Part shown: positions 17,529-50,463 of the stretch, piece after piece
Numbering within the stretch: position 1 is the first letter of the stretch
Layout of the letters: every line of letters starts with the position of its first letter
Made by a program: the position numbers and the translations under genes
The notes under the pieces: model-generated
Database searches by the model: none
What the model was told of the DNA's origin: nothing
Seen by the model: only the letters and a program-made list of their open reading frames with translations
NCBI GenBank assembly: GCA_964017145.1
Contig: OZ024850.1
Location: 3,015,618 to 3,079,617, forward strand
Direction of reading: 5' to 3'
Length of the DNA stretch: 64,000 bases
Source: Agrocybe praecox
Taxonomy: Eukaryota > Basidiomycota > Agaricomycetes > Agaricales > Agrocybaceae

Positions 17529-17965
17529 TTATACTTGTTCAAGGGATGTGGTAGTAGGAGGGAAGTTAGGAGGTGATCGAATGTATTGTATCAGAACGAG
17601 TATAAGATGAGGAAGAGAGAAAAAAGCGGACAGACAAGTGACTTGGGGAGTGCGAAGGTGTTTTTCGCTGTTCTTGATCCATTTCCTTGTCTCTTCATCA
17701 ACTTCAATCTTGTTGCATTCTCCCCTGACTTTGAAGATAAATGATGGCCATTCTGGATGATCTTCAATGGCTACGCGGTTGATGTTGTATGCTGTGGCTT
17801 GAATATAATTGATGTCGCCTTTGCGGATACGTAGGCGAGTGACGAAATAGACTACGCTGTTGTCTTCATGGCCATTGAGGATAACCTTTTTCCCAATATA
17901 AATGGTGGGAATACTGAGAGCGTGAAAGGATTTGGCCTCCAGACCATCAGGAAAAAGCCTTTAGC
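17529..17965 (-). pseudogene. gypsy accessory ORF X, 3' portion (cut by the giant transposon)
   Basis: An open frame without a start codon begins next to the left edge of the 32-kb insertion and ends at TAA (17529-17531). It contains KSFHALSIPTIYIGKKVI, DNSVVYFVTRLRIRKG and EDHPEWPSFIFKVRG, and resembles the middle of ORF Y. The matching 5' portion is at 50464-50815 on the far side of the insertion. Confidence 0.6.
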
Positions 17966-18013
17966 CCTAAGATGACTTGGATGAAATGTTATAATTTGGG
18001 TTATCATAAGTAG

Positions 18014-18051
18014 CCCCTAGGGCATCCCAGGGCATCCCAGGGCATCCCAGG
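18014..18051 (+). repeat. left subterminal repeats of the giant element
   Basis: CCCCTAGG is followed by three perfect 10-bp units GGCATCCCAG (18021-18050). The reverse complement of the same unit occurs at the other end. Confidence 0.85.
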
Positions 18052-18211
18052 AAAGCTCTGAGGGTCATTTTTGATTCTTTACATAATTTGATATCTGATT
18101 GGGGAAATATAAGTTACCCCTTGGGCTATTTGTGTCTCTTTATTTGTTTCAGTTATCGAAAATGTTATTTATAGGAGACTTTGGTGTCCCTTGTATCATT
18201 ATTAAAGTAAA

Positions 18212-21200
18212 CTAGTACAAAGTCATATACGAATAACTACTATGCCAATTATTGAGAAGAAATTGAGAGCAATTGTCAAGGACATTTTGGGATGTAAGAG
18301 TTTGCTTCCAGGTTGAGACACCATTACCACCAGCGTCAAACTTTGGTATAAGCATACAGCTTTGTCTAATGTCTGTGAGAGGAATCACAGCATACGATGG
18401 TGTGGCAGTCTTTTTAACATGGTACATGCCGCTTGATTCATCTGGACCTGTGGACCTAAAGGGTTTGAACCATTCAATGTAGGCAAGAGGATAAGTAGGC
18501 CAATTTTTTGGAGCCTCAGTTAAACCCAAACCAAAATCAAGTGTTTGGGGAAGAGAAAATATTAGTCTGACACGTCCAATACGTGTTCCTACAATCAAAA
18601 TAAGATCAAAGTGTATATATATACATAAACTACTAATACACACCTGTAACCATTGTTGTTTCTGCATTTTCATCAACAAAGGCAATAACAGTATCCATAC
18701 GTCCATGAGGATTTGATTTCGAGCAAGGTGCAGCCTTCACTGTATCGTTGACTTCCATTTCAGGATCATCATCATCTTGAATGCTGTGAGGATGAAATTT
18801 GAATTGTGTATACACATCAACTCGCTCAAATGGAAGGGTATAGAGATGTGATACAGCGTTTGAAGTCCTTGACCCTTTTGGAAGAAATTTATTCAGAAAT
18901 TCCTTGAGATGATCCCGGAATAAAGGTGCCTTATGTGTTGTTTCAAGAGTTGAAAGATGTCGATTAGGGAAAGGGGGGTATTTAGCTAATTTGATGATTG
19001 GTTTTTCTTTTAAAAGTGTTGGTGGCTTTGCAAGTTTGGGGGTATCCTTCCAATCAAGATAATTATCGAATTGAGAAATTTTTTCTTGTCTAGAAAGCCA
19101 GGTTGTCATTTGCGGAAAAATGTCCCTTTTATTTGATGCTCTGAAGCCTTGCTTGGCAAAATCTATATGAAAGCGCTCAAACGCTTCTGTATTATAGTTG
19201 TCTGTAGTGCCAAAAAGCTTGATGGCTTCGAGATAGTGAAGAAGAGAGTGGAATTTGGGAATATTCATGTCTGTCCGTATGTCCATATCAATGAAGAACC
19301 CCTTATACTCTTGGAAATCATTAAGAGCGTCTTCCAAATAGCCTAGAGTTGCGATGTTGTGGTATTTATATTGTGCCAAATAAATGAAGTCCAGAAGAGC
19401 TTTGATTGCTTTGATGCCTTGTTTCGCCATTTTTCCAACTAAACAGCCAAGTAGTACTTTGGCCATATGTTTCCGCTCAGGCCCAGAGATTTGGCTCATA
19501 GCTGACCAGCCATTGTTGAAATGACGAACACCAAAGGCAGGTGGCAGACACCTCAAGCGAGCGTCTAGTTCCTCCGGTGTAATCAAAATTTGACACCAAT
19601 CAATGATGTATTTGAAGACTCCTTGATATAGCTGATGAAGAATATCGGGGGTTATGGAGCGATGAATGTCGCACAAAGGAAAATCCTTCCAAAAAGGCTC
19701 ATAAACACTTCCAGATATATCGTTCTCCATACATGACTTGTAGAATTGTGACTCTGTGGATGATGTTTTTTTGGCGCTTTCGATAATGCCCAGTGTCCAG
19801 TTTTTTGTGCGGGGTTCACCAGGTTCTGGATCTTGAAGTTCTTTTGCTGGAGTCTGGCACTTGGGGCAAGTACCATACTTTGTACATGCAACTAAGCATT
19901 GTTCGGGAAAATCTGCAACGTAACAAGCCAGAATGGGAAAAACCTTTCTAACTTCTCCATTCCCCCCAGTCATTTCTATACCTTGACGGCCTGCCTCTAT
20001 CAACGGTGAAAGAATAAATTTCATAGCTTCATGAAAAAGTCGCTGATTGCGAATCCCAATGTTTTTTTGGGAAAGACCAGTGCCTTTGAGCTTCTTGGAT
20101 ATATCGCTAGGTAGATAGCCAATCAAAATACAAGCTCTTTTGGATGGTTTGCGTCGAAGTGATTTTGGTATGTTGCCTATTGTAAGATAGACAGGATATG
20201 CACTTTTGCCACCTGAAAACTGAGTAAGCTGAGTTTTATCCGTTGCAATAATAACTGGTGCAACAGTAGCACCTTGAGGTAGCTTGCTCTTTAATTAACA
20301 TTAGTTACATAATGAACAAGTAAAAGAGCGATGGAACTCACTTGAACAGCATGCCACCACTTTCCGGTCCACATTTCTGTGAAAATTCTATTATCCTTGT
20401 CGGACTTTGTAAAGACTCGTGTAGGTCGATAGATCAAATGAGAGGACAAAGCAGGATCACCCCATAAGCTTTTGATCGCTTCCAGAGGATCACGGTAGCG
20501 GATGGTGTAAATTACATCCTTCATATCTTGAAAAACCAGGTCTTCAGTTTTCCATTCTCCTCCTAGTTCAGGAATATCATTGTCGATGATTTGGTGTAAT
20601 CCTCTGATGTTTTTATATGAAAGTCCTAGCTTCTCTTTCACCTAAAAAATGAACAAATAAATATAGCATAACAGTATACAGAGAAATAAACTTACGCCTG
20701 GAATAGCTAACAATCTGTCAAAAGATTTATGACCAATGTTATCCTTGATTGCCCATCTTGCAATACGCCAATCCATTTCTGAGGCAAATGGATAATAACT
20801 TTTAATGTGATCGATTGACTCCTGGTTAAGGAAACCTGGGACACTTTCATCCAACTCCTTCTCTACAAGATTTTCAGAGTCCTTTTCAAAGAGTTGTTTC
20901 CATTTCTCATGAAGTCGTTGATCAATCTTGATAACAATACCAGCTCCAGGATACTCTTCTATTATGATTTCATCGTCATTATCCCACTCTCGACGCCCTC
21001 TATTTGCCATTGTTGCTGGTCCAGGGCCAGCTTCACCAATTGCAATGGACTCATCTGGCTCCTCTGGTATAAAATGAGTGGCATCTTCATCGTCCTCCAT
21101 TAATTCATCAAAGTAATCTATCAAGTCATCTTGATAATCCACTATATCCATGTCTTGGCTCTCAGACTCCTTCTGACTCAGATCAGGAGGCAGATTTTGT

Positions 21201-21406
21201 GGATTTGGTCTATCGTCTCCAGAGGTATACTGAGCTTCATCATCCTGAAAGTCATCTGGTTGAAATAAAGAATCTGCAAGCTCTCGCTTCTTTCCTTTTC
21301 CCCAGTGCCTGCATTTCTGTGCCATTTTAAGATGAGAAGACAGGCCCTTTATCGTTCGAAAATAGGAATGGCAAACGGGACATTGGTTATCATCAAGGAA
21401 GTTCAT
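18212..21406 (-). CDS. Plavaka transposase (CMC/CACTA-like, RNase H-fold DDE type)
   Basis: Four exons: 21406-20696, 20641-20342, 20288-18644 and 18588-18212. All introns are GT-AG and phase-consistent, giving 1010 aa with no stops. The N-terminus has a C2H2 zinc finger (CPVCHSYFRTIKGLSSHLK) and then a long acidic linker. The Plavaka core follows: DPLEAIKSLWGDPAL, NRIFTEMWTGKWW, VIIATDKTQLTQFSGGK (first catalytic Asp), a Cys-containing insert (CTKYGTCPKCQ), PDILHQLYQGVFKYI (second Asp) and YNTEAFERFHIDFAK (Glu). The C-terminus has the usual LAYIEWFKPF and VIPLTDIRQSC stretches. It should bind the element ends and catalyse cut-and-paste transposition. Complete and apparently functional. Family named from recalled motifs. 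Confidence 0.88.
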
Positions 21407-21591
21407 AATGAGAGTAAGGATATAACAAAGAGCAAAGTATATATGTAGAAAGAATCAGATTCAACCCAGCAAGCTGCAACAAGGCCTTTGTTCCCACGAG
21501 ATATATCCGCGACAGCAAAACTATAATAAGAAAAGAAAAGATTCAGAAATAGAAGAGAAGGTCGTTATAGAATGATGTACTTTATGTTTGG

Positions 21592-22173
21592 TTAAAAACG
21601 TGAGGATGATGGAGTAGGAGGGATGTTTATCATGGGGATTGAAGTTGGCGACTCAATACCATCGAGCACCCGATCATGAAAGGGGTTATGGAAGGGATCG
21701 TCTTGATTAGAGAACGTCTCTGCTGGAACCTTTGAAGGAGAAATACATGTTGTGCAGGTATTCCAGACTGAAAATAAAAATAAATGAAATTTGACAAGAA
21801 GCATAAAAAAAACAAAAAACATACCAGAGAGGGACACCGAAGAAATCAAAGCCCAGCAGCTATTGAAGAAGCCACTCTTGTTGAGTCTCTCCAATTCTTT
21901 CACCCGATCTTCTAAGCTCTGAAGCTTTTTCTTCTGGACCCCATTGACCTCTACCTCTAGACCAATAACCTTTGCATCATTGCGGACCCTGTAACGATGC
22001 AAATTGCTATCAAAATTGCGAACACTTGAGTCCAGATTCAGCATCAGCTTTCGAAGCTCTAGTATGCCAGGATTGCGCTTGGCATCCATTGATGCGTCCA
22101 CTGCAGCCACCAGGTTGGTAATCTGCTTTTGAAGGTTTACAGGAGACATGCGGGACTGATTATACAGGGACAT
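21592..22173 (-). CDS. small coiled-coil protein, unknown function
   Basis: ATG at 22173; a 57-nt intron (GTATGT...TTTTCAG, about 21824-21768) is in phase, giving about 174 aa. The N-terminal 100 residues are helical, with a likely coiled coil (KKKLQSLEDRVKELERL). A short hydrophobic stretch (CWALISSVSLS) precedes a Ser/Pro-rich tail ending in IPPTPSSSRF. If the intron were retained, the added residues would form a membrane segment (FFVFFMLLVKFHLFLF) in the same frame, so two isoforms are conceivable. It lies immediately upstream of the transposase on the same strand, divergent from the gene at 22317, so it may be an accessory protein of the element. No family recognised. Confidence 0.6.
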   Translation of the reverse strand: MSLYNQSRMSPVNLQKQITNLVAAVDASMDAKRNPGILELRKLMLNLDSSVRNFDSNLHRYRVRNDAKVIGLEVEVNGVQKKKLQSLEDRVKELERLNKSGFFNSCWALISSVSLSGMFFVFFMLLVKFHLFLFSVWNTCTTCISPSKVPAETFSNQDDPFHNPFHDRVLDGIESPTSIPMINIPPTPSSSRF

Positions 22174-22316
22174 GATGAGAATGTAGGATGTGGGTTGAAC
22201 TAAACCACTAATAGAGTTCGTTTTTTGACTCTAGTGAGCTGACTTGATTTAGCTTCCCACGAAAAATATGTCATTTAGTGCCTAATTTGATCATCACCGC
22301 TTCTTACATATCAACC

Positions 22317-23177
22317 ATGATTCCCAAAAAGCGAAAAATAGAGCGTGAGCTCTCTGAAGTTCCAGAAACCCCTCAAAAGGAACTTTATGAGGTTAACGAT
22401 GTGTTCTTTAGCAGGGTAAATATTTTTATGAGATTTTGATGCTCTGTACTAATTATAGAACAGACAGATCAGAGAACAGGCCTGCAAGGCCTGCAATCAA
22501 AACCGCCTGCTACAAAGATCAATGTTGCAGACAAGAAGACAGTAGCGTTCTATGACTCATCTCCACTGTCGTCTCTACTGTCTGGGCCACTAGATGTCAG
22601 CGGTGCAATTCCAGAATATTCGCCATCCAAGAGTCCCAGTCTCTCTCCTGTTCCAGACCATAGGATATATGGCTGGTCAGCGATAGTTGATTATTATGAG
22701 AGAAATTATAACAAGCCTCCTCCCTTCAATGATGAGGTATGTTTGAAACCACTGTTTCAATCACCGATACAGATAATGTGTGTTGTTTAGACTAGGTGGA
22801 AAATGATGGACGAAGCATGCAATACTCCACCTAAATCTAGAGGATCATCAAAAAGAGACGAGTCTCTGAATAATCCTGAGCCATCAGCAAAACGGGTCAG
22901 ATTCATTTCCCCACTCAAGCTATTTCATAATAGCAATGAGGTAAAGTTGGAGCCAGCAACGAACGAAAGCGGTATTTCCTATGGCCATGAAGTAAAGTTG
23001 GAGCCAGCAATGAACGATAGCAAGGGGGCAAAGTTGGAGGCAGCAATTCAAGAAGCTAAATTTATTCAAAAAGAAATAGAGTTTTTGAATGAAAGTATGA
23101 AGTCGTTGGTAGAAAAGCAGAGGGATTACATTAATAGATATAATGCTCTTAGAGCAATCATCGATGGTAAAAAATAG
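22317..23177 (+). CDS. small nuclear-looking coiled-coil protein, unknown function
   Basis: Three exons (22317-22415, 22464-22736, 22791-23177), all phase 0, giving 252 aa. The N-terminus is basic (MIPKKRKIERE), like a nuclear localisation signal. A Ser/Pro-rich middle follows with GWSAIVDYYERNYNKPPPF. Then come repeated (E)VKLEPA motifs at about residues 168 and 187 and a variant AKLEAA, which fit the SUMO-acceptor consensus, and a C-terminal coiled coil (KEIEFLNESMKSLVEKQRD). Its start lies 144 bp from the divergent gene at 22173, suggesting a shared promoter. No known family. Splice sites are my model. Confidence 0.6.
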
Positions 23178-23624
23178 ATTTAGGTGTAGAACTTATTATC
23201 AATGCCAACTTTGCCGGAGACTCAAATGGCCCTGCTAAAAAAGAATCTGAAGATTGATGAACAAAGGAATGAAAGCAAAAAAAGAGTCAAAATATGGTGA
23301 ATGGTGATAGTAAGCGTTGAAGCTGTTGTGTTGTTTGTTTTGAGGTCCTTTAATAATGGATGTTGAATGGTATTCTTGAATTTATCTTGTTAGTATAAGT
23401 CACACAAAATGAGAGCAGGCAAGAAGAAAAAAAGCGCAAAAAAACAATAACATACTTATCATACTTGTGGGTACAAAAAAAGAGTAACGTAGTCTAATAA
23501 ACAGTGCTGTATGTACAAAAAAAAAAAACAAAGGCATCCATGAAAAGCAGGCAAGAAGGTCAGAGCAATAGAAGTAGATACAAGGATTAAAATACTAGTG
23601 AGCGCTCAGCTTTTGACAAAAGAA

Positions 23625-26254
23625 CTACAATCCACCCATATGAAGTTGATCCAAAAATCTTTCCGAATGGTCTTCAAGCTTCTTGGAAAGCCTGCGCTGG
23701 TTTCCGTTTATGCGCACACTTAATCTCCATTCAGACTGTGTCAATGGTTTAGCGTCACCTCTTTGAATACTTTGTATACGCTTGTTAAACCATGCTTCAA
23801 GATATTCAGTCCAAAAAGGGTATGCTACATTTGCTTTCCATGTTTTGTCCGTTGGCCACCAGGACTTGATGACGATTTCAACCTTTTCAGCTAAAATAAT
23901 GATTAGTATTAGAATTTTATTTTATTTTCAAAGAATTTCATACCTTGTTCACATCTGTATGCACCACATATAACATCCATTTCTGCTTCTGAGCAAACAT
24001 CATCAAAGTAGCCTTTCCCATCATTGGTCTTGTACTCAACGCAAGTGTCTGTATGCTTCCACTTGCTGGATAAAACATCATCAAAGCTGCAGTTAACAGA
24101 CAACCTCCAAACAATACCCCCAGTTTTCAGAGCCTTTTTTGCTATCTCATTGTTGCTAAGCAATGCTCGTCGATCCTGGCGGTACAATTCGTAATCAGCT
24201 GCATTAAAAACATAGCCTGCAGTTCTGAAATGTATGTAAGGTTGGTAGACATGCATTGGTTCCTTGTATCCAGTGTTGGGAAATAGAACTTGGAATTGAA
24301 TTCCTTTTTGAAGCAGTTCCCGACAGATTTCGTAGTCGCCCATATTGTCTTCATATCTGCATATCATGAGAGCCAATGAGGCGGTCTTTACACCAAGACT
24401 CCATTCCACAGTAGATGAGCATCCCATGTCGAGCATAAAAATATAAGAGTCCTGCGAGCGTATTTTTTTGATGTATCTTTTACCCCCGCTACCAGCTAAG
24501 GGAAATCGGCATACTCGGAATAGGTCCCAGTTCTCTGGTAAAGGACTCTTGCCTACAGTGCACAAGCCCATCAAGAAATTCAGAGCTGCTGACGATACAT
24601 CAGACCGAAAGAAGTTTTCATCAACTGCATCCTTTCCAAGCAGATTGCTGTACATGATTTTATCCTTGTCCTTGAGCTGCAGATTTGGAGATAATGACTC
24701 AGGATCCAAAGGAGGAATGTATCCCATGTATCGATGGAGAATATCGATTGCCTCATACTCATTGGCATCATCCATCATCAATTCCTCCCAGGTTAGAAGC
24801 TGATTAGACCAGTAGTAGTGACCCTTCAGATTGTCGTGACTAGTACTACTCGTTTCCAACTCCAGTGGATAATTTGCCATGTCATCCTCCATGTTGTAAT
24901 GCTCCTCTTCTTGTCGGCCGTACAAGACCTGATTCATCATGTCTTCTTCCTCAATTTCATCCTCTTCCTTGTCACCAAATGCAGAGCAGCAGTCCCATTC
25001 CCCAAATACACTGCTATATTGTTTCTGATTTCTGCCGTAAAAGATCAGAGTATCCTCTTTTTCAGCACGCGTGACTGTTCTTCTTTGGTAAATATCCATT
25101 TCATCTCGCTCCCATACGAAGACCTTTATCTTTTGGAATCCTCCAGCGTTATCCCTCTGCAACCGCCTCCTTTTGGTCTCTTGAGACTCCTTTTCTTCAA
25201 TTTCCTTAGTCCGTCTAGCTCTTTCCTCTATAAAAGCATTTAAAACTGACTTTGGATCTACAGCGCTCGGTGTCGTTGTCAAAAAGGTGGTGGCGGATTG
25301 CATAGATTCAGGAGAAGGAGCAAATTTTAATAGATTATTATTGTCCATTTCTCTTTGTCCCCATTTGTACCATACAGGTATATTGAATTCCACAAACCAT
25401 TCGACGGGGAATTGATGTTTCATAGGATCTACTAAATCAACTATGACCCCGACTCGTTCAACGCTACCATCAAATGCACCACATGTGGCATTTACGGCTG
25501 AAACAAAACCTTCATACCAATCCTCTCGTACCAGGGTTCGAAACCAGGTAAACTTTTCAATTGCCTTGCCCCCGGAAGGTTCAATAGTCTCGCAGACAGC
25601 TATAGCGTAAGATAGTCTGCATAGCAAGTAGGAGTACCACTCCCTGCAGCGCACAATATCTGCACGTAATTCCTCGTTGCTAGTATGTTTTCCGCCACAT
25701 GTAAATGCACGTTCGATGATAGTGGGTGTCGGCGGCATGTTTCCTATGTTTGAAAGAGAAATAAAGGAAAGCTTCAGACTGTGCTCAAGTCTATGCCAAC
25801 GAATTATATCCTGGCTCCTCATGTAAAAGGTTTTGTCTCTGTTTCGACAATGATAGACTGGTGTCTCCAAGGCCCATCCAAAGGGTCCTTTTTGGATAGG
25901 ATTTATATCTAAGAATGCCAGGTGGGCATACTCCAATGTCCACCATCTAGGCTCGCGAAGGATCTCTATTGAGTCTTGCTGTGGGTTAAAAGAAAGTGGT
26001 TCTTTCGATGGTTTTGGAGGAACATTTATAAGGGGTCTGCGACAGTTGGGAGAATAAAAAAGATCGCCATTGATCAAACATGTACGTCCAATAGATCCTG
26101 CCTGCCTTTCTGAGCCCTCGAAAGTTTTCTGGGTTGCTTCATAGAACTTATGATACCTGTCTTTTCCAAAATACATCGGCCACATGAGAGGTCCAATTTC
26201 ATGGCGTGTTTCACTGTAACCATCATTATTTAACTTCACGTGTGTCGACTCCAT
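23625..26254 (-). CDS. large uncharacterised protein (858 aa), transposon cargo candidate
   Basis: Exon 1 is 26254-23944, the intron 53 nt (GTATGA...TTTTAG), and exon 2 is 23890-23625. The long frame is free of stops. Visible features: an N-terminal region with WWTLEYAHLAFLD, FGWALETPVYHC and DIIRWHRLEHSL; PVEWFVEFNIPVWYKWGQRE near residue 295; an EERARRTKEIEEKESQETKR charged helix; a strongly acidic linker (DKEEDEIEEEDMMN); and a C-terminal region with YIFMLDMGCSSTVEWSLG. I have the impression of similar multicopy proteins in Agaricomycetes, but cannot name the family or function. No transposase, nuclease or oxidase motif is evident. Its intact state next to the transposase suggests it moves with the element. 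Confidence 0.7.
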
Positions 26255-26557
26255 GTCTAAAGTCCCCGGAATTTATGGTAAAGTACTTCGGGATTATGAT
26301 AGAAAATGTTAGCGTTCAGTCGCAGCACGAAAAGAGAAGAGAAACTCACCAAAATATGTCGCGAGCTGAGAAGAAACTAGTGCCAGAGGTTTTTAGAGAC
26401 ACTTACTGCAAATCTGGCTGACAAAAGCTATCACATTAGCATTTGTCATTGAAAAGCCACAACAGCAAAGAAATGCGAAAATAAACTTACCAAAATGCAG
26501 TTCCAACTGTAGCGCACAGGGTTGAGAGAACCTCACCACAAATCTGGCCTCCTGTTT

Positions 26558-26851
26558 GAAGTCCGGGCGTCCGCAGAAGTTGTTTTTTTTTGGTATTCGC
26601 GCGCCGCGTGGTTTCAGAGATGAGTAGAGAACCTCACGTCAACTCTAGCTACCAACGCGAATATGATAGGCCGACGACGAATGTCGAGAACGAAGGATTG
26701 ATTTGAAGTCCAGGCGTTCGCAGAAGTTGTTTTTTTTGGTATTTGCGCGCGCCACGTGGTTTCAGAGATGAGTAGAGAACCTCACGTCAACTCTAGCTAC
26801 CAATGCGACTATGATAGGCCGACGATCAATGTTGAAAATGAGAGGAGTGAC
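26558..26851 (+). repeat. 147-bp tandem duplication
   Basis: Unit 1 (26558-26704) and unit 2 (26705 to about 26851) both run from GAAGTCC through GCAGAAGTTG, TTTCAGAGATGAGTAGAGAA and ATGATAGGCCGACGA, with scattered differences. Unit 2 diverges near its end. Confidence 0.85.
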
Positions 26852-27127
26852 AGAATTACGAAGCTGATAAGAATAGAAAGAAAAGATGTTCCCCTGAAAT
26901 TCGGTGAAATCTCCGATGGTCACAACTGTCACAGTGTGTACTTACTATTTCTGGAATCCGCTTGACTTTTATTTACATACCCCTATTATTACTTTCGAAG
27001 ATGTAATTTAGTACAGCCTTTCTGTAGCCTTTAATTTGAACAGTTTTTAAAATTTCCAGACTGCGTGGGTACAGTTGAGTTAGAAATATGTTTTACGCAA
27101 AGAACAGAAGAACCCAAACTTCTGAAA

Positions 27128-27159
27128 GTCCGTCGCATGTGATGTTATTTCCCACGGTA
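27128..27159 (+). repeat. dispersed motif copy 1 (GTCGCATGNGAT...TTTCCCACGGT)
   Basis: One of four same-strand copies in the middle of the giant element. This copy has a degenerate palindrome. Confidence 0.7.
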
Positions 27160-27287
27160 ATCTAAATTCTCAAGGGCACATATGGCGGCAGAGTCCACCC
27201 CAGCCTCTTATAATTCTGTTTCATATATACTATGGCCTTTTACGCTGGCTCATTTTACCTAAGAGGACTCCAGACGCTTTCTGTACC

Positions 27288-31520: not shown

Positions 31521-31539
31521 ATCTTTATCTTGCAGAATA

Positions 31540-38752: not shown

Positions 38753-38784
38753 TCCTTCGCATGCGACACTATTTCCCACGGTAG
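38753..38784 (+). repeat. dispersed motif copy 3
   Basis: TCGCATGCGAC then ATTTCCCACGGT; just upstream of the F-box-like gene start, so possibly in its promoter. Confidence 0.75.
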
Positions 38785-39760: not shown

Positions 39761-40131
39761 TATGACTTCAAACTTCTAATTCAGCGTTGTTTTAGTCTTA
39801 TCGAGAGATATTAGAGAAAATATGATTGTACATAATTCAAGCTACTCACATCATTTCCTTCAGGAATGCAGCCGAGGTATGAAGCGGACTCTGCGATAGC
39901 TGGGAATCACTGTGATGGATCCCAGAACCCGGCCGATCCACCAGTCAACAGTCCAACTCGAAGGACGCTTGTCGAAAGACCATAGACTTCAGAAGCGAGT
40001 TGTGTAAGTCGTTCTGCAACCCACTTCGATTCGATGTAATCGGACGGGATCTTTAAGACAGAATTCAGTCGCAGATCCTTTTGAATCAGAAAAAAATTGA
40101 GATTTGGCTGTAAGCAAAAAATTCCACCATG

Positions 40132-40990
40132 CTAAAGGGTGAAGATAAGTAAGAGAGGAAAGATATTGCAAAAAAAAAACATACAGTTTGGTACATGGTG
40201 GCTGACAATCCGAAAGCATCCTTTGTGAGGTTGCCTTGCGGACGGACGAGGAAGGGTGCGGTTCCGAATTGGGAATAGCGATACCATATTCTTCATGTCC
40301 GAGCTGTACTTGGTGAGCATGTCGTTCATGATATCAGATTTCTTCTTGGAAGCTGTAGGCTTGGGGTCTTCACCGCCTCGGAAGATTTGGCAGCGTCGCT
40401 TTGGGAAGAAGAGACTAAATACGAGAAGCAGAGAGCGAGTCGATACCATACGCAGTGAAAGGAACGTCTGGAGAAGAGTTGACTTCGGGGATGTCGAGGA
40501 CGTTCCTGACAATTTTGGCCATTTGTGCAACTTCGTCCAAATTCAATGTCGATTCCACAGCCTCATTGGGAAGCAGATGTCTGCCTGAACGAGGCATACC
40601 TTCCGTCCTCTCCAAAGCATCACAAGCCAGATCAGGAACGTAACGAGTGACACGCTGACCATGTTGGAACCTATACATGATGTCGTCAAACCATTTAACG
40701 CGAGAGGAATTTGAGAGGAATTTCCACTTACCTGCGCTAGTGTGAAAGCAAGACAAGTAAATCACGAAGAATCTCGTGAAGGCAGCACGTATGCCTATAA
40801 TACACCGCAAACATAGCGAGGTGGGTTCTGCGCTGTAAGGGTGTCTTTCGTTGTGGTGGAAGGAAAGCTGTGCAACATATACCCCTCCTGATTGGCGACG
40901 TCGCGCGTGTAAACAGCAATTATCAACGTCGTCCGGCACTTCTTCCCAATTACAACGCTCACTCGCGCCAAACCAATGTTCAGCAATGTA
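40132..40990 (-). pseudogene. fragment of a polyketide-synthase or reductase carrier-protein region
   Basis: Minus-strand pieces include IAEHWFGASERCNWEEV, then after an intron-like gap RVKWFDDIMYRFQHGQ, LPNEAVESTLNLDEVAQMAK, IVRNVLDIPE and the phosphopantetheine-site context YGIDSLSASRI. The GIDSLSA Ser is the canonical carrier attachment site. The frame breaks soon after, and a LTKYSSDMKNM piece appears in another frame. No condensing, acyltransferase or adenylation domain is present. It is a shard of a larger multidomain enzyme. Confidence 0.5.
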
Positions 40991-40999
40991 CGTCGGGTC

Positions 41000-43179
41000 G
41001 TTTTCTGACCATTGAGGGAAGCAATTTTTACAGAACAGTTACATAGGCCTCCGAAAAGCGCCGTCCAGCGATGGAACAGCTACACCGTTGACACCATATA
41101 CGTAAAGTTAGAAATGTGATATATCCTCACAACGTCTCTGACTCTTTGTGAGATTTTCCCCTTGATAATGTTAATAACTTAGATAGCGCGGTTGAGTCGT
41201 TAGGAATTATAATTACTTCTAAATTTGCTCTATGTAAATAGCAGATAAAAATAGAAAGCATAGTGACATGGGTGTGACACTGTGAGCTTACCTGCCAAAT
41301 TCGGACTTGGCATCTTAGTTGCTTACTGCCAGCAATGATCATGATTGTTGACTGAAACTTCATCTTTCGTTACACATATCTACACTGTACATATCTGGAT
41401 ACCTGGGACTATCTTCTATCTCCTGCAATGATGGCTGTCTGTGCGTCGACTGGAGGTTCTCCGCTCGTCGCACGACTCACATCTTGCACTGCTTGGCCCT
41501 GCTACTCCCTTCTGTCAAAGTCTGCTGTCGATCGTAAGTGCACTTTTTCCTCATTTCTCTCTCTTTTTACTTACATGCTTCTCTTTTAGTGACCATGAGA
41601 TTTGCACATCATCCGATCATGGTCCTGACTCGGGCCTGAATGCGAGTACATATCTTACATTACTTCCACTATCCCTTCATATCCACTGCTCGGATGCTGG
41701 ATCGTGAAGAACGCATTCACAAACTTCTCGCCTGCGTTCATCCTCGCCTAGCTCGAACACGTTGGGAAGCATTCCACCGAGATATCCAGGTGGCACCGGC
41801 TGTAAAGAGGTGGCTACCGCGACGCGCGTACTTGAAGGACGAGCACCACTTATCAATGAACCCTAGAATTTGCAATCAGGTTGAATGTGAGTGTTCTTTG
41901 ATTCGGTTTTTCAATACGATGAAACCGATCATCTCGCCTGCAGACTGGCCTCACCATTAACGGAGCGGTCTTCAATCAGTCACGCTCCGACCTCCGTGAT
42001 GAGGGGGCTTGCGGGTGCTGTCTGTGGATGATGCTGAGAATGGGAAGATGCCGATGGAGGCTAACGCGACTGGGAACTTGGACGTACGTTTCCTACGTGA
42101 GCCGGCAATTGCTGCGGATGGCGCCACGTATTAGCAGGAGGTCTGTGATCAAAGCTGCTGCTGCTACCACAACTGGATGCGCCTCCCGGATGTAACTGGG
42201 CTTGGGGTCCTATGCGATTAACTGGTGATTGAGGCACATGCGATCCATGATTTGAATCAGAAAAAGACGGTCCTGGACGTGATACCTGAACTACTGGATG
42301 CTTTATCTTCGAATCTCCTGCTGTCCCATTATTTGGATTGGAAGGGGGGTGAATCTGAGATTTGAACTGTTGGCAAAAATTAATACAGAGTAAGCAACCT
42401 TAGCTGAATCATACGGCTCCTTTGATTTACCCTTTCCCTTTTTTCAGTCGTTCAAGACCGACGGTCACTCTTTGGGTTTCCCACTCAACACAGGTGCGTG
42501 GTTTTTCCATTTTCTGAGATGTCCCTGAATTCATTTTCTGTCAGATCTCAAATGTTAGTGTTCATTGTATCCTATATCAATCATCAGTATGCATGCGGAG
42601 CCCCCAACCGACATCACAATGAGCTCGAAGCAGAGATTACTATATCTTCCCCCAACCTCACAGAGTGATCTATGCGAACAAAGCTTGAAAGGCTTCGGTG
42701 CTCACTGGCAAATGACGAGCTTGACGAGATTCATGATTTTCGCGGTATTAGATCCGGTAAGACTTTTTCAACGATTTTTGTGCGCGCACTATGGCTTAGT
42801 CTTAAACTTCTAGTATCACCATCCTTGACGAGGCGCCCTCGATCGTAGCATTGGGACCCAAGGTGATCTCTGACAAAACCCCAGGTGTCAGCGGGTATTG
42901 GTGCTATCGTCAAGTGTGTTGAAAGTTACTTCAAGCACGATGGTCTTCGTTGCTGCAGGTTGGGCAATCTCGATGCGGGCAGGGCATAGGCGCCCTGTCG
43001 TTTACGCGGTACTAGTGTTAGGTGGAGTAATGTCTGTTAATTGGCAAGGAAAGTATTTCGTGTACCCGCTTGCGGAAAGAAGCCTACTTTCCTCTAGATA
43101 GAAATAAAATGAACAATGTGAAGATTTAACAAGATTCTTGAGTGGTGCCGGCATTTTTGATGATGTCGAGATTTATGGG
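41000..43179. other. no supported gene; promoter-like repeat copy 2
   Basis: Holds the second copy of the CAAATTCGGACTTGGC / GTGCGTCGACTGGAGGTTCT blocks (about 41290-41480). Short frames near 41640-41960 (with HPRLARTRWEAFHRDIQVAP) and 42730-43101 are not recognisable. Confidence 0.4.
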
Positions 43180-43210
43180 TCCGTCGCATGCGACTGAATT
43201 TCCCACGGTC
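43180..43210 (+). repeat. dispersed motif copy 4
   Basis: GTCCGTCGCATGCGACTGAA then TTTCCCACGGT, 75 bp upstream of the TET/JBP-type gene start; contains the perfect 12-bp palindrome GTCGCATGCGAC. Confidence 0.75.
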
Positions 43211-43284
43211 ATTTTTTTTTTAAATAGAACATACATTCGAGTACTGTTCTTCCTCACATTTAACTGCGTTTCATCTTGTTTATC

Positions 43285-46200
43285 ATGCCTTTTGTTTGGC
43301 TCTCCGAGGACAACATAAAGATACTACTTACGGCAACCGAATGGTATCAAAATGATCTTCGCGTTGACGACCAGTCAGTACTTGAAGTAGAAGATATACA
43401 ATCAACCCTCCTGGAACATCTGCCCCAACGACATTCATTACCGGACCAAATGGAAAACGACGAAGATAACTTTGCGTTGTTTGGAGTAGGCGCCGTGGAT
43501 GTGGATGATGAGCTCAGAAACAAAATTTCAAGGGGCTCAGATATCATTGTACGTTATTGTCTGCTGATGCAGCGTCTCACTAATACCGACTTACGCTGAT
43601 AAATCTGTAGACTACGGACGGCGATACAGTCCATTTTGAAATATCTGAAGCTACATTAATGCACGATGTACCCCAAAGAAAATCACATACAATGATGAGG
43701 GACGAAGAAGGTACATTGACATTGAGAGCCTATTTTGAGAATGTATGATGCTGAGATATTCTATCTTGCAGAAAGCGAGGCTGCACACGATTCTGGGGAC
43801 GACACTATGTCCAGCAGTACTGGCCGCTTCAGGTCGACGACGTTATACGGCGAGCAGCTCAAAGAATGCGAAGCGATGGTTATACCTTCGAACGAAGGTG
43901 ATATGATGAGTGGCGAACAAGGTATGTGAATATTGAGAGCCTATTTTGAGAATGTATGGTGCTGAAATGTTCTATCTCGCAGAAAGCGAGGCTGCACGCG
44001 ACTCTGGGGACGACACTATGTCCAGCAGTACTGGCCGCTTCAGGTCGACGACGTTATACGGCGAGCAGCTCAAAGAATGCGAAGCGATGGTTATACCTTC
44101 GAACGAAGGTGATATGATGAGTGGCGAACAAGGTATGTGAATATTGAGAGCCTATTTTGAGAATGTATGATACTGAGATATTTTATGTTGCAGAAACTGA
44201 GACTGCACGCGACGCTGGGGGTGACACTGTATCCAGCAACACTGGCCGCTTCAGGTCCTTGACGTTATATGACGAAGAATGCGAAGCAGTTTCGCCCTCG
44301 AAGATAGCTGCTATAATGAATGGCAAAGAAGGAACTCAGAAGGCATCGTCTATGGCCCAGCCGGAACATGGTGAGTAAGCGCAGATTAGTTCCAGCTGAT
44401 ACGAATTGAGTGTCTCTTCTGCATCTAGAAACCCATTTCGGACCAGCGTGTCCCATGAATGATAGTAGTGGGGCTAGCAGCGTGGGGGCTCTGCGATCCG
44501 GGACTCCACCAGTGAATGGTCAAGGTGAGTATCTTCTATCGTTACTATGAGTCTCAATCCATACTGATATTTATGATTACTCTAGATCCTGATGCTCGGG
44601 ACATCAGTGACTCTGACACGGATACAATGGGAGCTATAAGAATGCCAACTAGGTCTCACAGGAAGCCGTATATTATCTTGTCAGAGGACGAAAGTGAGTA
44701 CCTATACAAATGAACTTCGAGTGCTCATAATCAAATTCTTTGTTTCTTGCAACAGATTCTGAATCCCGGTCGGCGGTGGATAACGCGGTGGCCGGCAGCA
44801 CAGGCGTTGTCACTGATCAAATTGGTTCGTGCTTGTTATGTTATTTTTGTCATATCCGCAACTTAATCATATTTAGGATCCACATGTGCTATGACTGGTG
44901 GTGATGCTCGAGGCGGAATAGCTATGAAAAAGCATTCTCTCTCCAAGCGTAATCAACCAGACTTGGTCCTAGGCACAGGTAATGCAAACGGCGAGTAATC
45001 TTTCTACCGTTAAGTCAAGTAATCAGTATAGCTGAGCGTCTTTCTCTTTCATCTAGTTGAACGCCAGGAGCTACCTTTGTTGGCCACCCCAGAGTGGGAA
45101 AGAATTTCGAACCATTGTTATGCGCCAGAAAATTTGATGCCGGTGCACCATGAACTCGTCGTTTCAATCCTTTCTCAAGGAAACATAGAAAGTGTTATGG
45201 GCGAGCTGTCTTCCGCTATCAATGATCTGGTCACCGGTGTTATTTGGAAGGGGAAAATAACAGCTCTAGGCTCTGATTATGGTCAAACACTATCGTCAAT
45301 AGCAAAGTGCTGCATTAGTCATGAAAGGTTGGAAGTAGGTTTCAGCTTCCTCAGTATGATCAATTGTATACATCTTGTCGCCAAACTCAAGGGGTAAGTG
45401 TTTTCAATTTTATTATTCAACTGTATTGACCTTTCGACTATAGTCTAGAAGCTACTTTTCCTGGTATACACAGGAAAGATATCTTAGCATCTCATCTATC
45501 TTCTAAAAGAAGTATCAGTTCTTTCGAGAGATGGAGGAAAAGCGGTGCCAATTTTGCTAAATTAGCCGAAGCAGGTAAGTGTTATATCTTTTCCTCCTAC
45601 AATCCCTCTTATTAGGGTCTTAGGTTCTATATATCTTCTTATACTTGTCGCTGCCGCCAAGAAGAAAAGTGTTGTAACCAAATTGCTCGGCATTGTATGC
45701 GATGCAATTTGTCATATTATGGCAAATCCTAATCCCGGCAAGTCTACTATTTTTCTCAATCTTTCATGCGTTTTCTTATCACATACCCATAGACCTTCCT
45801 CTTGGGAAGCTAGTAATCAAAAATCTTATTCCTGCCATCGATAAAATGAGACGAAAGTGGCCAATGTCTCTACAATCACTTCTTGAGCCTGGCCAGCTTC
45901 GCCTTTATGGCCTTACAGAAACCATAGATTGTACAGATATTCTGGGTAGCGCTCACTACTTTGCGGTCCTGAGATCAAAGTGGGTCTTCTTACTAAGGAT
46001 ATCACTTACGTGACTGAATGCGTCATAGGTCCTTCCGAATAAGTGTGCGCAATGAAGACGCATGGCGGAATTGCTTCTTTTCGACTATTCCTTTGGGCTC
46101 AAAACGTTTCAAGTTGATGAATATCGAACCTGTTGATGTATCTAGCCTTTCCCAGTCTGGGCCTGATGATTATCATTCCGACTCCTCTGAAGACATACCA

Positions 46201-47473
46201 CTGATGGTATCTTGCAGAAAGTCACCTCATATGAATGTATTCGTCATTGAAACCAATTTCGATCCAGGACTTAAGGAGAATCGCCGGTTTTCTGGGCCAA
46301 AGAAGGATTCCAGGAAGATTTTTGACTTTACTGAAGAAGAAAGAGAATATGTCAAAGCTGGCGCTTGGGCAAAAGACCTTGATGACCTTAAAGTCAAGGT
46401 AAATTTCTACATGACTATACCGTTTTTTCTTTCTCTCATTATTTCACATCAAGGTTCAAGATATGTTAAAAACAGGTCGAAAACCTAAAGGCGCATACAT
46501 TAGGTTTGATCCATCTATACTTGGCCGGTAAGTACTTGAATACCAATCTTATATATGATTACCCACACGCTTTCTAGTAAAACTTTACGAATCAACGACA
46601 AAAATGGCAACTTTCTTATAGTTGTAGTTCCTTCCATGCCGACAGACATTCGTGAAGATCTTTGTGATCGTCTTACATCTATATGGCCAGAGGACTTCAA
46701 ACCTACCAATACATCAGAAGAAGCATGGGATTTCCTCTATCCTAATATTCATTTTACCTTATATAACCGTTTTTCTACCCAGGTATGTTTTTTTCTTCTT
46801 TGCCCTAGGGATCCTTTTTAATATTATGCCAGGGTATAGGATCTCCTAATGATGTTTCTCCTTATCTTCTCAAAAGAAAAAAGGCTCAACGCCAGCAAAC
46901 ATTATCCCAACTAATTCCCCGATTTTCGAAAGAAACAATTGAGAACATAGAGGAGTATTTACTCTTTCGAGATTTGTTTAAAAATGTCTTCGGCTGGACA
47001 AAACAAATTGTAAGATTTATGTTTTTTTTATTTTGTTTTTTATTTTATTTTTTATTCTTATTGATATGTATGTATCTCAGGTTGAAGACCTACTTCCTGA
47101 AATTGTGAAGGAATTACAAAAATATGTTGACGCGCTCCCAGATCACGAACTTGCGCCCATGGAACCTTTTACCAGTGTTGTTTTGAATCTCAACTGTTCG
47201 ACAACGTTTCATCGAGATTACAAAGACTGGCGGGTATGTGGTTTATTGGTGGCTTCGGATTGCATTGGTGGAGATATTGCCTTTCATGAAATGGGCCTTG
47301 CTATGGCGGCAAGAAATGGTGATTTCGCAACCTTTCCTTCTAATTATATCAGCCATTTTAATATGGGTTTCAATGGAAAACGAGCGTCCTTTGTCTTTCA
47401 TACAGACAAAAGCGCTGAGAATTGGGTAAATAATTATAATGGCTGGGGTCAAAATGTAGACTTTATTCATTAA
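43285..47473 (+). CDS. TET/JBP-type 2-oxoglutarate Fe(II) dioxygenase
   Basis: A many-exon gene with nearly all introns about 50-65 nt. The first ATG is 43285 and the TAA ends at 47473. The N-terminal half is acidic and Ser-rich, and is built from short phase-1 exons, three of which are tandem duplicates (43772-43921, 43983-44132, 44194-44370). A middle region (SNHCYAPENLMPVHHELV, ASHLSSKRSISSFERWRKSG, KLVIKNLIPAIDKMRRKWP) precedes the C-terminal oxygenase fold. That has the metal-binding H-x-D in STTFHRDYKD, GGDIAFHEMGLAMAARNGDF, the distal His in SHFNMGF and the 2OG-binding Arg in GKRASFVFHTD. All residues expected for activity are present. Relatives oxidise 5-methylcytosine in DNA and in basidiomycetes are spread by transposons (established). 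It lies in tandem with the DUF6532 gene. Confidence 0.8.
43772..44370 (+). repeat. triplicated exon-intron unit, 211-bp period
   Basis: Exons 43772-43921 and 43983-44132 are nearly identical (50 codons, ESEAA-DSGDDTMSSSTGRF), including the upstream intron. The third (44194-44370) is diverged (ETETARDAGGDTVSSNTGRF). All are phase 1 at both ends, so gain or loss keeps the frame. Confidence 0.92.
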
Positions 47474-47743
47474 TGAATCCTAGTTAGAGTAGTAATCATA
47501 TTTTATTTTATTTTAATTTTTATTGGAACTTATCTGAACAGACTGGACAGGAGTTCTGTTAAAGTCTATTCATTTGTGCTGGAGAAGTGTGGATTTTAAC
47601 CCATCGGCTTGGGCGCCTTTGTTTAACAAAGTTTGTTCCATGTTTGACATGGTTGAATTTTTATTCTCCTGTTTCATGTTATATGTTTGCATTTGCTCAC
47701 CACCACAACCTTCTTCTTTGATTTCATTACTTCTTCCTTCATA

Positions 47744-49808
47744 ATGCCGAATGCTAATACTCGAGTGTCAACGCAGAAGCAGGCAAAGGCCACAAAGTCA
47801 ACGTCCAAAACCAAAACCCCAGGAAAGACCCGCTCTGGAAATAAAGCCAGTTCTGACTTTACTCCTAATATAGAAACGACATCCAAGGGTTTAATGGAAC
47901 AAAAAAAGAAGGATGAGCAAGCTGCAAAAGCTGCAGAGCAATTCAGAACGCAAGGTGTGTTTTTCTTCATCTTCTTTATACTAAATTTCAATGCTTGTTT
48001 TTAATAGGCATACGCAAGAGAAATCAAGATGCTAGGGATAATGAATCCTCAGCTGAATCATCGGAAGATGAGGATGACAGTCCTAGGGCTCAAACTTCAA
48101 TTGCGCCCAGAGCTAAGCGCCCACGTGTTCTGGATGAGGATGAAGCACGCCTGGCGAACTCTCTCAGTCTTGGCCAAGATGAAGACACTTTTTCTCCAGG
48201 AGAGCCTGAAGAAGACTCGCCAAGCAAAGGTAATGATGGGTCCGATGCCCCAGAGGAAGAAGAAGACAATGAAGAAGATGAAGATGAAGAAGACGAAGAG
48301 GGAGGACTTAGTTATGATCATGAAGCAATGTTTGCTTCAAATGGGGTTTGGTTTTTTATATTTCTTTTATTATTATATGACTTACTCTTCTGTAGATTTT
48401 TACACAGGCTTCTGCTGATACCGGTAGCCGAAAGATTGCTTCCAAGAAAAGAAAATCAGGTAGCCGCAAGTTTGGAAAAATCAAGAGAGAAGACTTCAAC
48501 GATACTGTTTTACCTTTGGCTATTATGGCAAAGAAGCACTTTCGACAACAAGCTGCTCTAGGTATCATTATCCTTTCTCTATATTCATTCATCTTTTGAT
48601 TATATCCAATTCAGACACGCCATATCCTCCCAAAGGTCCAGCTGAAAGAGCTAAGTTCAACATGGACCTTCTCAAACAAGCAGCGTCAACACCTATTCTC
48701 AAAAAGATTCTACAAGACCTCATTCAAAGTAAGGACCAGGACACCATCGATAGCTTAATCACCTATGTAAGTCCTATGCTAAGCTGGCATGCACGTATTT
48801 CTTTAAATCTTGATGTTCTATCATTAGGCAATTTATGACAGAGGCAGTCTGACCAATACTTTGGCCAGTCGTGTTCAAAACCTTATCACTGGGCATTATG
48901 GTCTTCCAGGGGAATTTTCAAAGGCTCAAAACCGTGCAGCCTATGTCGCTTGGCTTTTGGAAAAGGGGAGGTTTAGATTTGGAGGTCTTAATTTTGAGGT
49001 ACGCATTTTTCTTTTTCTTTTTCTTTTTTATTGTCTTATATCATTATATTTAACAGAATAGAGAGGTTGATACGTTACGCCCCTATGGCAATCCTATAAT
49101 TTCGGAGGCTATTCGCCAGCAGTGGTTTTGTACAGGAAAAGCCAAGTCTGACCTAAACGCTTACAACATCATGATGGCGAAGCAAAAAATTCCAGCACCA
49201 GTTATTGTTCTGGTTGTTACATGTGTACGCAATTTTATTTATGATGAGCTTACCCTAATTCAAGTATTATATTTTAGATCGAAAACTGCTTAAAGCAGTG
49301 GGTCACAGGCGTCAAGCTTCAAGTTCCTTTTAGTGAGGAAAACTGTCGTGCTAAGTAATTTCCTTCTTTTAACATTATTTTGATGCCATTATTGATTTAT
49401 TTCCTCAGATACGAACATCATACAGAGGCCTGGAATTATTTTGTCACCAAGTCCCAGGATTCCGGCTACACAAATTACTTTCAAAGAGAGCTTTTTAAAA
49501 CTGTTTAGTAAGTACTGGCGTTATTACATTCATTGTTATTTGATACTAATAAAGTTCCACTTTTGATTAGTTCGCAAAGTCGTGCGGGGGCTGATCTTCA
49601 CAATGTTGAGGACGATTTTGAAGGAGTCGATTTTATGGCATTAGGCGCTATTGCTCGGGCTGCTCAGAGCAAACAAGCCTCTACTTCCACAGAATCCACT
49701 GTGTCTTTTACTTCTGGTAACGATCCTCTCATAACAGGCCCTTCTTCCAATCAACAGGATGAAGTAGACGATTCAACTGGATCTACTACAGGTGCTAGTA
49801 CTTTGTAA
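47744..49808 (+). CDS. DUF6532-type protein
   Basis: ATG at 47744; about eight exons with consensus introns, ending at TAA 49806-49808. The N-terminus is Lys/Thr/Ser-rich (TRVSTQKQAKATKSTSK), then an acidic run (EEEEDNEEDEDEEDEEGG) and a basic NLS-like stretch (SRKIASKKRKSGSRKFGK). The C-terminal domain runs through LAIMAKKHFRQQAALD, LASRVQNLITGHYGLPGE, PIISEAIRQQWFCTGKAK, IPAPVIVLVVTCIENCLKQW and FSEENCRAKYEHH. This pattern matches the Agaricomycete domain I know as DUF6532 (family recall). It is probably nuclear and DNA-associated. It is 270 bp downstream of the dioxygenase gene on the same strand and likely moves with it. Confidence 0.7.
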
Positions 49809-50408
49809 ATAGCTTTATCTTTAGTCAATGTTTTCTTCTACGCTATATTATAATGTATGATGTTTTGTGTCATTTAATCTGATTGAGTTACTCCTGGGTA
49901 CTCTTTTATTCACAGTGGGCATTGATTTCTTTTTCTGGAGCTAAAGGCGCTTTTTTGTGTTAATAAGTAAATTCGGTGATGTAGTACCTCTTTTTGAATA
50001 AATCATGTGGCAGGAAAACAAAGACGCTATTTGGTACACTTGATTTTTTTTAGCAATATAGTAATCCTTTGGAGATGAATTATATCTTAGGGAATAATAA
50101 CGCTCTTGATTATTAATGATCCCATAAGGTCTTAAAAACTCTTTTCAAACTAACTTGTGATTTTAAGTTGATAAATAACTCTTTTTATAACTGGCTATGC
50201 TCTAAGGCTTCGAGGATGGACTAGGAATCTAAACTTAAATCCCAATTATATTAAGTCTCTAGATTACTTTAGAATAAGATTGATTATAAATGTGTTCTTT
50301 GGAGCTCTATAAATAAACAAATAAATAAAGTTTACAAAAGGAGAACTTAGGGAAAGTTTCAGATTTTAGTTCCGGAATGACCATAACCTAGGAGTCCCAA
50401 GGAGTCCC
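49809..50408. other. AT-rich non-coding end of the giant element
   Basis: No ORF. AT-rich sequence leading into the right subterminal repeats, as expected for CACTA-like element ends. Confidence 0.6.
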
Positions 50409-50463
50409 TGGATGCCCTAGCTCCCTGGGATGCCCTTAGACACCCTCAGGGACACCTAGGGAC
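50409..50463 (-). repeat. right subterminal repeats of the giant element
   Basis: Reading leftward on the minus strand: TCCCTAGG, then GGCATCCCAG (50434-50425), then GGCATCCAG. This mirrors the left end. Confidence 0.8.

What the first reader, a model, noticed from the sequence alone, without database searches (positions are those of the whole stretch)
17960..50463. A ~32-kb Plavaka-type transposon carrying a TET/JBP dioxygenase, DUF6532 and unknown cargo
Seen: matched inverted subterminal motifs in the same order at about 18014 and 50463; an intact Plavaka transposase inside one end; dioxygenase and DUF6532 genes inside the other; and a gypsy ORF split across the two flanks. Known: TET/JBP genes of basidiomycetes travel with transposons, chiefly KDZ. 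Inference: this is a single giant mobile unit that carries a transposase, a DNA-modification eraser and three unknown proteins, and it could demethylate its own or neighbouring DNA. The size and gene set make it more like a cargo-bearing mega-transposon than an ordinary CACTA element.
Basis: partly seen in the sequence, partly recalled or inferred. Interest (0 to 1): 0.92.

Follow-up and report, generated by a model that had tools for sequence, protein, structure and literature searches.

The report
Giant fungal transposon hoarding host-gene fragments
This is a real 32.5-kb jumping gene of a fungus that carries its own mover enzyme, a probable DNA-demethylating enzyme and a patchwork of pieces copied from the host's own genes, and the same genome holds relatives of 22 to 59 kb with other cargo.

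Summary
Confirmed. The element is window 17945-50482 (32,538 bp): TIR CATCAGGAAAA/TTTTCCTGATG, 2-bp target duplication AC. Joined flanks match four uninterrupted retroelement copies without gaps, two at 298/300. In this 59-Mb genome eight family members of 22.3-59.0 kb carry both tips, 7 of 8 with matching 2-bp TSDs; four of four other loci tested have the same tips and TSDs. It is a PlavakaB-like transposon with a subthreshold TET/JBP-like gene and a DUF6532 gene.

The surprise is the interior: 8,362 of 19,062 bp (44%) of the middle align at 79-98% to host loci outside the family, including parts of lumazine synthase, arginine methyltransferase, YL1 and a reductase-like gene, shuffled and nested; the innermost piece is closest to its donor (96%; the two outer layers ~90%). 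Copies B and D carry pieces of other host loci. Core genes are under purifying selection. The halves of the element differ in age, so modules are exchanged. A 25-bp motif occurs 19 times in the genome, always in these elements and in one orientation.

TET-bearing PlavakaB elements are published (Kojima 2025). Giant size with private host-gene patchworks looks like a new variant.

The parts
17945..50482 (.). whole element, 32,538 bp, inserted in a Ty3/gypsy-like retroelement; TSD AC at 17943-17944 and 50483-50484
   Evidence: tips unique in the window, joined flanks match four empty-site copies without gaps
17945..17955 (+). left terminal inverted repeat CATCAGGAAAA
   Evidence: in 8 of 8 family members with both tips
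50472..50482 (-). right terminal inverted repeat (TTTTCCTGATG on +)
18016..18051 (+). subterminal motif CCYAGGGCATCCCAGG, three overlapping copies; probable transposase-binding sites (inferred)
   Evidence: D19, I2, I8
50384..50460 (-). inverted subterminal motifs at the right end
   Evidence: I2, I8
18212..21406 (-). Plavaka transposase gene, 4-exon model, 1010 aa, N-terminal C2H2-like finger (weak match), no internal stop
   Evidence: PF18759 7e-85, DUF6830 8.8e-7; model; omega 0.09-0.17, no stop in 5 of 5 other copies
21592..22173 (-). small ORF (193-aa model, exon structure uncertain)
   Evidence: omega 0.21-1.07, weak support
22317..23177 (+). 252-aa model, conserved in the family
   Evidence: omega 0.08-0.41
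23625..26254 (-). unknown core gene, 858-aa model, no Pfam family above cut-off
   Evidence: omega 0.15-0.23 against B, C, D (E, G saturated), no stop in 5 of 5
27129..27161 (+). family-private internal motif, copy 1, at the end of the conserved left module
28157..28189 (+). family-private internal motif, copy 2
38753..38785 (+). family-private internal motif, copy 3, 60 bp upstream of the 450-aa model's start
43180..43212 (+). family-private internal motif, copy 4, 72 bp before the start of the 282-aa model
27186..27945 (+). captured host DNA from C1:718913-720188 (88-89%); donor ORF with weak Cyclin_N (0.021, below cut-off)
28710..30271 (-). captured host DNA from C13:2718668-2720382 (89-91%), donor ORF without Pfam family
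30270..30648 (-). captured host DNA from C4:1344188-1344671 (86-95%), donor ORF without Pfam family
31546..32044 (+). outer nested fragment from C11:1190330-1191152 (88-98%, length-weighted with its resumption 90.3%)
32045..34685 (+). middle nested fragment from C3:1057527-1059604 (90.3%), arginine methyltransferase gene
   Evidence: (PRMT_C 6.7e-15 in donor)
32284..32853 (+). inner nested fragment from C5:2782514-2783083 (96%, 570 bp, no gap), lumazine synthase (gene on - strand)
   Evidence: DMRL_synthase 1.1e-28 in donor
34679..34787 (+). resumption of the C11 fragment, duplicating C11:1191101-1191152 (52 bp)
   Evidence: (D11)
39272..41096 (+). eight shuffled pieces of C8:868118-872796 (79-94%): YL1 and an adenylate-forming-reductase-like gene
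   Evidence: donor: YL1_C 2.2e-15, NAD_binding_4 1.4e-13, PP-binding 2.5e-6
41986..42375 (-). captured host DNA from C8:639081-639472 (89%), donor ORF without Pfam family
37288..38692 (-). element-resident cargo gene, 450-aa model; distant relatives in B, D, E and at further family loci
   Evidence: omega 0.12 and 0.15 against B and D with dS ~2; no hit in C and G
43285..44378 (+). 282-aa model with 211-bp tandem repeats; motif and first exon shared by the six copies assembled here
   Evidence: D1; omega 0.24-0.40
46044..47473 (+). TET/JBP-like dioxygenase gene (start uncertain)
   Evidence: H-R-D, S-H-F and K-R-A in 6 of 6 copies; omega 0.10-0.13
47744..49805 (+). DUF6532 gene, several exons, exact splicing not settled
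   Evidence: PF20149 65 bits; omega 0.06-0.11

Best explanation
The finding is one complete giant DNA transposon of the PlavakaB kind (CACTA-like, CMCT clade). Shown: exact tips, 2-bp duplication, empty target, eight family members with both tips, an uninterrupted transposase under purifying selection, and a fixed plan (transposase reading out of the left end, TET-like and DUF6532 genes near the right end, variable cargo between). Shown: much of this copy's cargo is host genomic DNA copied in pieces. Inferred: the transposase binds tips and subterminal repeats and cuts and pastes the whole unit; breaks inside the element are repaired by copying host DNA as filler, giving nested fragments with short overlaps and small duplications; elements exchange modules by recombination; the TET-like enzyme counters methylation-based silencing so the element stays expressible.
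For: Tips, TSD, empty site. Family: (22,293; 24,371; 25,988; 32,538; 37,180; 44,657 bp; 26,145 and 58,970 bp from tip positions, recomputed; 2-bp TSD matches in 7 of 8, the exception CA/CC). Host donors. Nesting: innermost piece 96% to its donor, the two outer layers 90.3% each. Lumazine synthase piece copied gaplessly over 570 bp with its coding parts in two frames, as across an intron, so DNA rather than mRNA. Of 17 junctions between mapped pieces within 40 bp of each other, 6 overlap by 1-13 bp, 6 abut, 5 have 1-38 bp unmapped. Nesting in B with an 8-bp duplication. Selection. Same plan elsewhere: 26 of 37 TET-like loci have a divergent Plavaka transposase 16-53 kb away; random points mean 1.54, maximum 6 in 200 trials. 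Four of four other loci tested have tips, a 2-bp TSD and a DUF6532-like match (one DUF match only 1e-4). A near-identical pair on C12 and C11 (99.6-99.7% in the end stretches up to the tips; 99-100% in 8.1 kb of the middle) has different flanks.
Against: The TET assignment is below Pfam's cut-off in the three copies scanned, has no meaningful PDB sequence match, and a single-exon model failed (pLDDT 42). Stops lie in the TET-like gene of E and in the catalytic exon of 2 of the 12 family loci (C2, C9). CpG depletion of the resident modules speaks against effective protection from methylation. 56% of the middle has no donor counted, and a few counted stretches have further matches elsewhere. The C11 twin lacks a matching TSD (TG/TT). 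The repair route is read from junctions only. Much of the DNA examined in E and parts of B, D and the C12 element are repeats. Donors of B, D and the C6 element were not annotated.
Confidence: 0.83

Rival explanations
1. Two separate smaller elements at about 18-27 kb and 43-50 kb that happen to lie side by side with host DNA between them.
For: The two conserved modules are separated by highly variable DNA, and their divergences differ.
Against: Ends pair at 8 loci, the empty site lacks the whole 32.5 kb, each 11-base tip sequence occurs once in each of the six copies assembled, 26 of 37 TET-like loci pair with a transposase.
Confidence: 0.02
2. Ordinary TET-bearing Plavaka elements whose size comes mainly from nested retroelements and other repeats; captured host pieces are incidental.
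For: The 9.9 kb examined in E is mostly repeated DNA; a 1.8-kb repeat lies in the C12 copy and not in its C11 twin; parts of B, D and the C6 element are repeats.
Against: In A 44% of the middle maps to host loci, several with Pfam-recognised host genes; B and D and the C6 element (C6:834359 and C6:2309953 pieces at 90-93%) have low-copy pieces too.
Confidence: 0.22
3. Cargo arrives by recombination at the internal motif (a docking or exchange site) rather than by random break repair.
For: 19 of 19 exact motif hits in the genome lie in these elements by position and in one orientation, reversed control 0; 12 of 102 middle alignment ends lie within 60 bp of a motif in both sequences, against about 1-3% of positions per sequence; in D a host fragment (76% in its first 190 bp) starts at the motif's last base, in A one starts 25 bp after it.
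Against: The 12 ends stand for about three independent boundaries; most captures in A are far from a motif; in six copies the motif lies 62-83 bp before a start codon, which a promoter would explain; B has no host fragment beside its first motif.
Confidence: 0.15
4. The direction is reversed: host genes acquired pieces from the transposons.
For: Similarity alone has no direction.
Against: Donors with recognised domains are continuous genes, while the element holds truncated, shuffled, nested pieces.
Confidence: 0.01

Closest known systems
TET-positive PlavakaB DNA transposons of Agaricales (Kojima 2025, PMC12730594; parts 1-5 of 7 of the text and passages read, supplement not read)
   Same: Plavaka transposase, CATCA..TGATG tips, 2-bp TSD, TET/JBP-like gene in the same unit; the very weak similarity to known TETs fits that paper's description of the Agaricales proteins
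   Different: H-x-D here, whereas that paper gives H-x-E as hallmark of the PE type carried by TET-positive Plavaka. The words giant, cargo, fragment and DUF6532 do not occur in its main text.
Pack-type transposons (Pack-CACTA, Pack-MULE of plants; recalled, papers could not be opened)
   Same: pieces of several host genes, introns kept, shuffled inside terminal inverted repeats
   Different: here the carriers are fungal, encode an uninterrupted transposase themselves, and are 22-59 kb
Helitrons of Pleurotus ostreatus (Castanera 2014, PMC4289320; passages read)
   Same: DNA transposons of a basidiomycete with extra genes
   Different: rolling-circle elements; [quoted passage not shown]
Starships of Pezizomycotina (recalled)
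   Same: giant fungal cargo-bearing elements with a mobility gene at one end
   Different: no tyrosine-recombinase captain among the ORFs scanned; DDE-type Plavaka transposase, TIRs and 2-bp TSD instead

Membership tests
PlavakaB | Plavaka transposase (PF18759) | tested here: met
   7e-85
PlavakaB | termini 5'-CATCA..TGATG-3' | tested here: met
PlavakaB | 2- or 3-bp target duplications | tested here: met
   2 bp in 7 of 8 family members and 4 of 4 other loci; not in the C11 twin
PlavakaB | position inside PlavakaB in a transposase tree | not tested
   no reference sequences at hand
TET/JBP dioxygenase | profile match above Pfam's cut-off | tested here: not met
   20.7, 18.8, 17.2 bits against 34.9 for A, G, B; in A the match spans profile positions 15-160 of 164
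TET/JBP dioxygenase | 2-His-1-carboxylate motif and downstream Arg | tested here: met
   H-R-D, S-H-F, K-R-A in 6 of 6 copies (motif assignment by eye)
PE-type TET of Kojima 2025 | H-x-E in place of H-x-D | tested here: not met
   H-R-D in 6 of 6 copies
Pack-type element | fragments of host genes inside the TIRs with the donors still present | tested here: met
   A; B and D: host loci, not annotated
Pack-type element | non-autonomous, without own transposase (recalled definition) | tested here: not met
   uninterrupted 1010-aa transposase model
Starship | DUF3435 tyrosine-recombinase captain (recalled) | tested here: inconclusive
   not among Pfam matches of the ORFs and models scanned; only part of the element's ORFs was scanned

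The most novel reading that the evidence does not exclude
These elements are modular platforms: a mobility module and an anti-silencing module flank a bay that is filled and exchanged at a private internal site of 25-33 bp, so that each copy assembles its own patchwork of host genes, some possibly expressed from that site, and moves it as one 22-59-kb unit.
Probability: 0.15. Interest if true: 0.9.

Novelty: new variant of a known kind. Interest (0 to 1): 0.72.

Why it matters
It would give fungi an equivalent of the plant gene-shuffling transposons, but in large carriers with their own transposase and with layered captures whose donors and junctions can be read in one genome. It makes two open questions testable: how cut-and-paste transposons take up host genes, and whether a transposon-borne TET-like enzyme really protects its carrier from methylation.

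Tried and rejected
Two separate elements: rejected by the empty site and paired ends. Capture by way of mRNA: disfavoured; of the donor gaps that I viewed (11, 4) none coincides exactly with a GT-AG intron (by eye; the 108-bp C4 gap lies near a possible one). Structure of the TET-like exon: pLDDT 42, not used for a fold search. PDB sequence searches gave only chance-level matches. A steady gradient of ages in the three nested layers: I first saw 88-92, 90 and 96%, but length-weighted the two outer layers are equal (90.3%), so only the innermost is clearly younger. Self-protection from methylation: CpG observed/expected is 0.47-0.63 in left and right modules of the six copies, 0.88-0.99 in their middles, 0.97 in the 12 donor loci, 0.72 in the right-flank and 0.92 in the left-flank DNA; in captured fragments of A, B, D donor CpG sites read TG/CA in the copy at 8.6% against 5.6% for other C/G sites, and the reverse comparison gives 6.5% against 4.6%, so captured DNA shows at most a slight excess. 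My first TET dN/dS used a wrong reading phase and was replaced. E's middle was searched for 9.9 kb only, B's for 5.75, D's for 7.4, the C12 and C6 elements' for 9.9 kb each; C, F, G, H middles were not searched.

So I make no claim that such elements are absent from print.
Full report
WHAT IS THERE. The window lies in contig C11 of a 59.2-Mb genome. Joining 150 bp of each flank with one TSD copy gives a sequence that four uninterrupted retroelement copies match without gaps (298/300, 298/300, 292/300, 286/297). The right flank has RVT_1, RNase H and integrase zinc-binding matches, and an empty copy has a frame open across the site.

FAMILY. Left-end and right-end searches gave 14 and 12 places. 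Eight pair correctly: A (window) 32,538; B 22,293; C 24,371; D 37,180; E 44,657; G 25,988 bp; F 58,970 and H 26,145 bp (tips, sizes). TSDs: AC, TT, AA, TT, CA in A, B, C, E, G and CA/CC in D, AA and AT in F and H: 7 of 8 match. Six left ends and four right ends remain unpaired in these searches.

ARCHITECTURE. Copies share a left module (17945 to about 27183; 86-98% with B and D, 80-96% with C, 70-86% with E and G) and a right module (46246-50482; 74-91%), with little else in common. Left: transposase (1010-aa model, no internal stop), a 252-aa and an 858-aa unknown and a small ORF. Right: TET-like and DUF6532 genes. Transposase omega against five copies is 0.09-0.17 with no stops; the 858-aa gene 0.15-0.23 in the 3 of 5 comparisons where dS is not saturated. 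TET-like omega 0.10-0.13 and DUF6532 0.06-0.11. The TET-like match is below Pfam's cut-off; H-R-D, S-H-F, K-R-A are in all six copies. E's gene has a stop, and 2 of 12 family loci have a stop in the catalytic exon.

MOSAIC. Transposase dS between A and B, C, D is 0.05-0.13, but TET-like dS is 1.5-1.8 and DUF6532 dS 0.35-0.47. The two halves of A therefore have different histories, which I read as module exchange between elements. Also, fragments 4-12% diverged from their donors are not shared with B, C, D although the left modules are about as close.

CAPTURED HOST DNA. Searching A's middle (19,062 bp) against the own genome gave 57 matches. I counted 24 of these rows, leaving out those inside family members and weaker or additional matches to the same stretches: 8,362 bp are covered (43.9%), at 79-98%; a few counted stretches have further matches elsewhere. 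Main donors: C1, C3, C4, C5, C8 (two places), C11, C13. Of ten donor ORFs scanned, those of the C5, C3, C8 (YL1 and reductase-like) donors match DMRL_synthase, PRMT_C and general methyltransferase families, YL1_C, and NAD_binding_4 with PP-binding; C1 has a weak Cyclin_N below cut-off; four of ten (C13, C11, C8:639, C4) have none. The pieces are nested: a C11 fragment is interrupted by a C3 fragment, itself interrupted by a C5 fragment; length-weighted identities to the donors 90.3, 90.3 and 96.1%. The outer break carries a 52-bp duplication, the inner one a 9-bp deletion. Eight pieces of one 4.7-kb C8 region are rearranged. B holds a C4 fragment inside a C1 fragment with an 8-bp duplication, D holds two C5 fragments at 76-92%, and the C6 element holds pieces of two C6 loci at 90-93%; these donors were not annotated. 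Mechanism inferred: repair of breaks by copying host DNA.

GENOME-WIDE PLAN. The TET-like exon has 37 matches in the genome, 12 of this family at 80-100% and 25 at 39-58%. Against 71 transposase places chosen from the 136 rows (one per locus, by eye), 26 of 37 have a Plavaka transposase reading the other way 16-53 kb off (10 of 12 family, 16 of 25 others); random points average 1.54, at most 6 (the control drew on the 13 large contigs only, with the length of C7 guessed). Four other loci examined for tips have them, with 2-bp TSDs and sizes 38.5, 25.2, 26.2 and 29.8 kb and a DUF6532-like match beside the TET gene. The 26.2-kb one has a near-identical twin of 24.0 kb on C11 with different flanks.

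INTERNAL MOTIF. TCGCATGYGAYNNNNNTTCCCACGG occurs 19 times in the genome, all inside this family by position (10 elements, C13 and C278 with one end known), all in the element's orientation; the reversed control gives 0. It marks the end of the left module in A-D and the start of a block shared by C and D, and lies 62-83 bp before the start codon of the 282-aa model's relatives in six copies, in E and G in degenerate form. Promoter or exchange site is undecided.

METHYLATION. Resident modules are CpG-poor, cargo is host-like. This fits long residence under methylation and later arrival of cargo (inference), and does not support complete self-protection.

KNOWN CONTEXT. Kojima 2025 (PMC12730594; parts 1-5 of 7 read, and passages) defines PlavakaB by CATCA..TGATG tips and 2-3-bp TSDs and reports TET-positive Plavaka in Agaricus bisporus and Gymnopus confluens; the proposed role is escape from silencing. 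In Marasmius oreades KDZ and Plavaka are about half of the DNA elements (PMC8290104, passages). Castanera 2014 (PMC4289320, passages) found no host-fragment capture by Pleurotus helitrons. Pack-CACTA and Starships are cited from memory.

Noticed in passing
27129, 28157, 38753, 43180 (+): Motif private to this transposon family (19 of 19 exact genome hits inside it, one orientation); palindrome CCGTCGCATGCGACGG followed by TTCCCACGG.
   Followed up: partly
G000 C12:2374645-2400844 and C11:1538991-1562996: Two near-identical giant Plavaka copies with different flanks, a recent transposition or duplication; the C12 copy has an extra 1.8-kb repeat, the C11 copy no matching TSD.
   Followed up: partly
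G000, 37 places: Large expansion of divergent TET-like genes, 26 of 37 paired with Plavaka transposases in the same layout.
   Followed up: partly
window 43692-44324: Three tandem 211-bp repeats inside the 282-aa model, the third only 72% alike.
   Followed up: no
window 37288-38692: 450-aa gene model without a family, distantly shared by several family members in either orientation, apparently under purifying selection.
   Followed up: partly
left and right modules versus middle in six copies: CpG observed/expected is 0.47-0.63 in the modules and 0.88-0.99 in the middle, a possible mark of captured DNA.
   Followed up: partly
window 31993-32047 and 34679-34733: 52-55-bp direct duplication flanking a 2.6-kb captured block.
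   Followed up: yes
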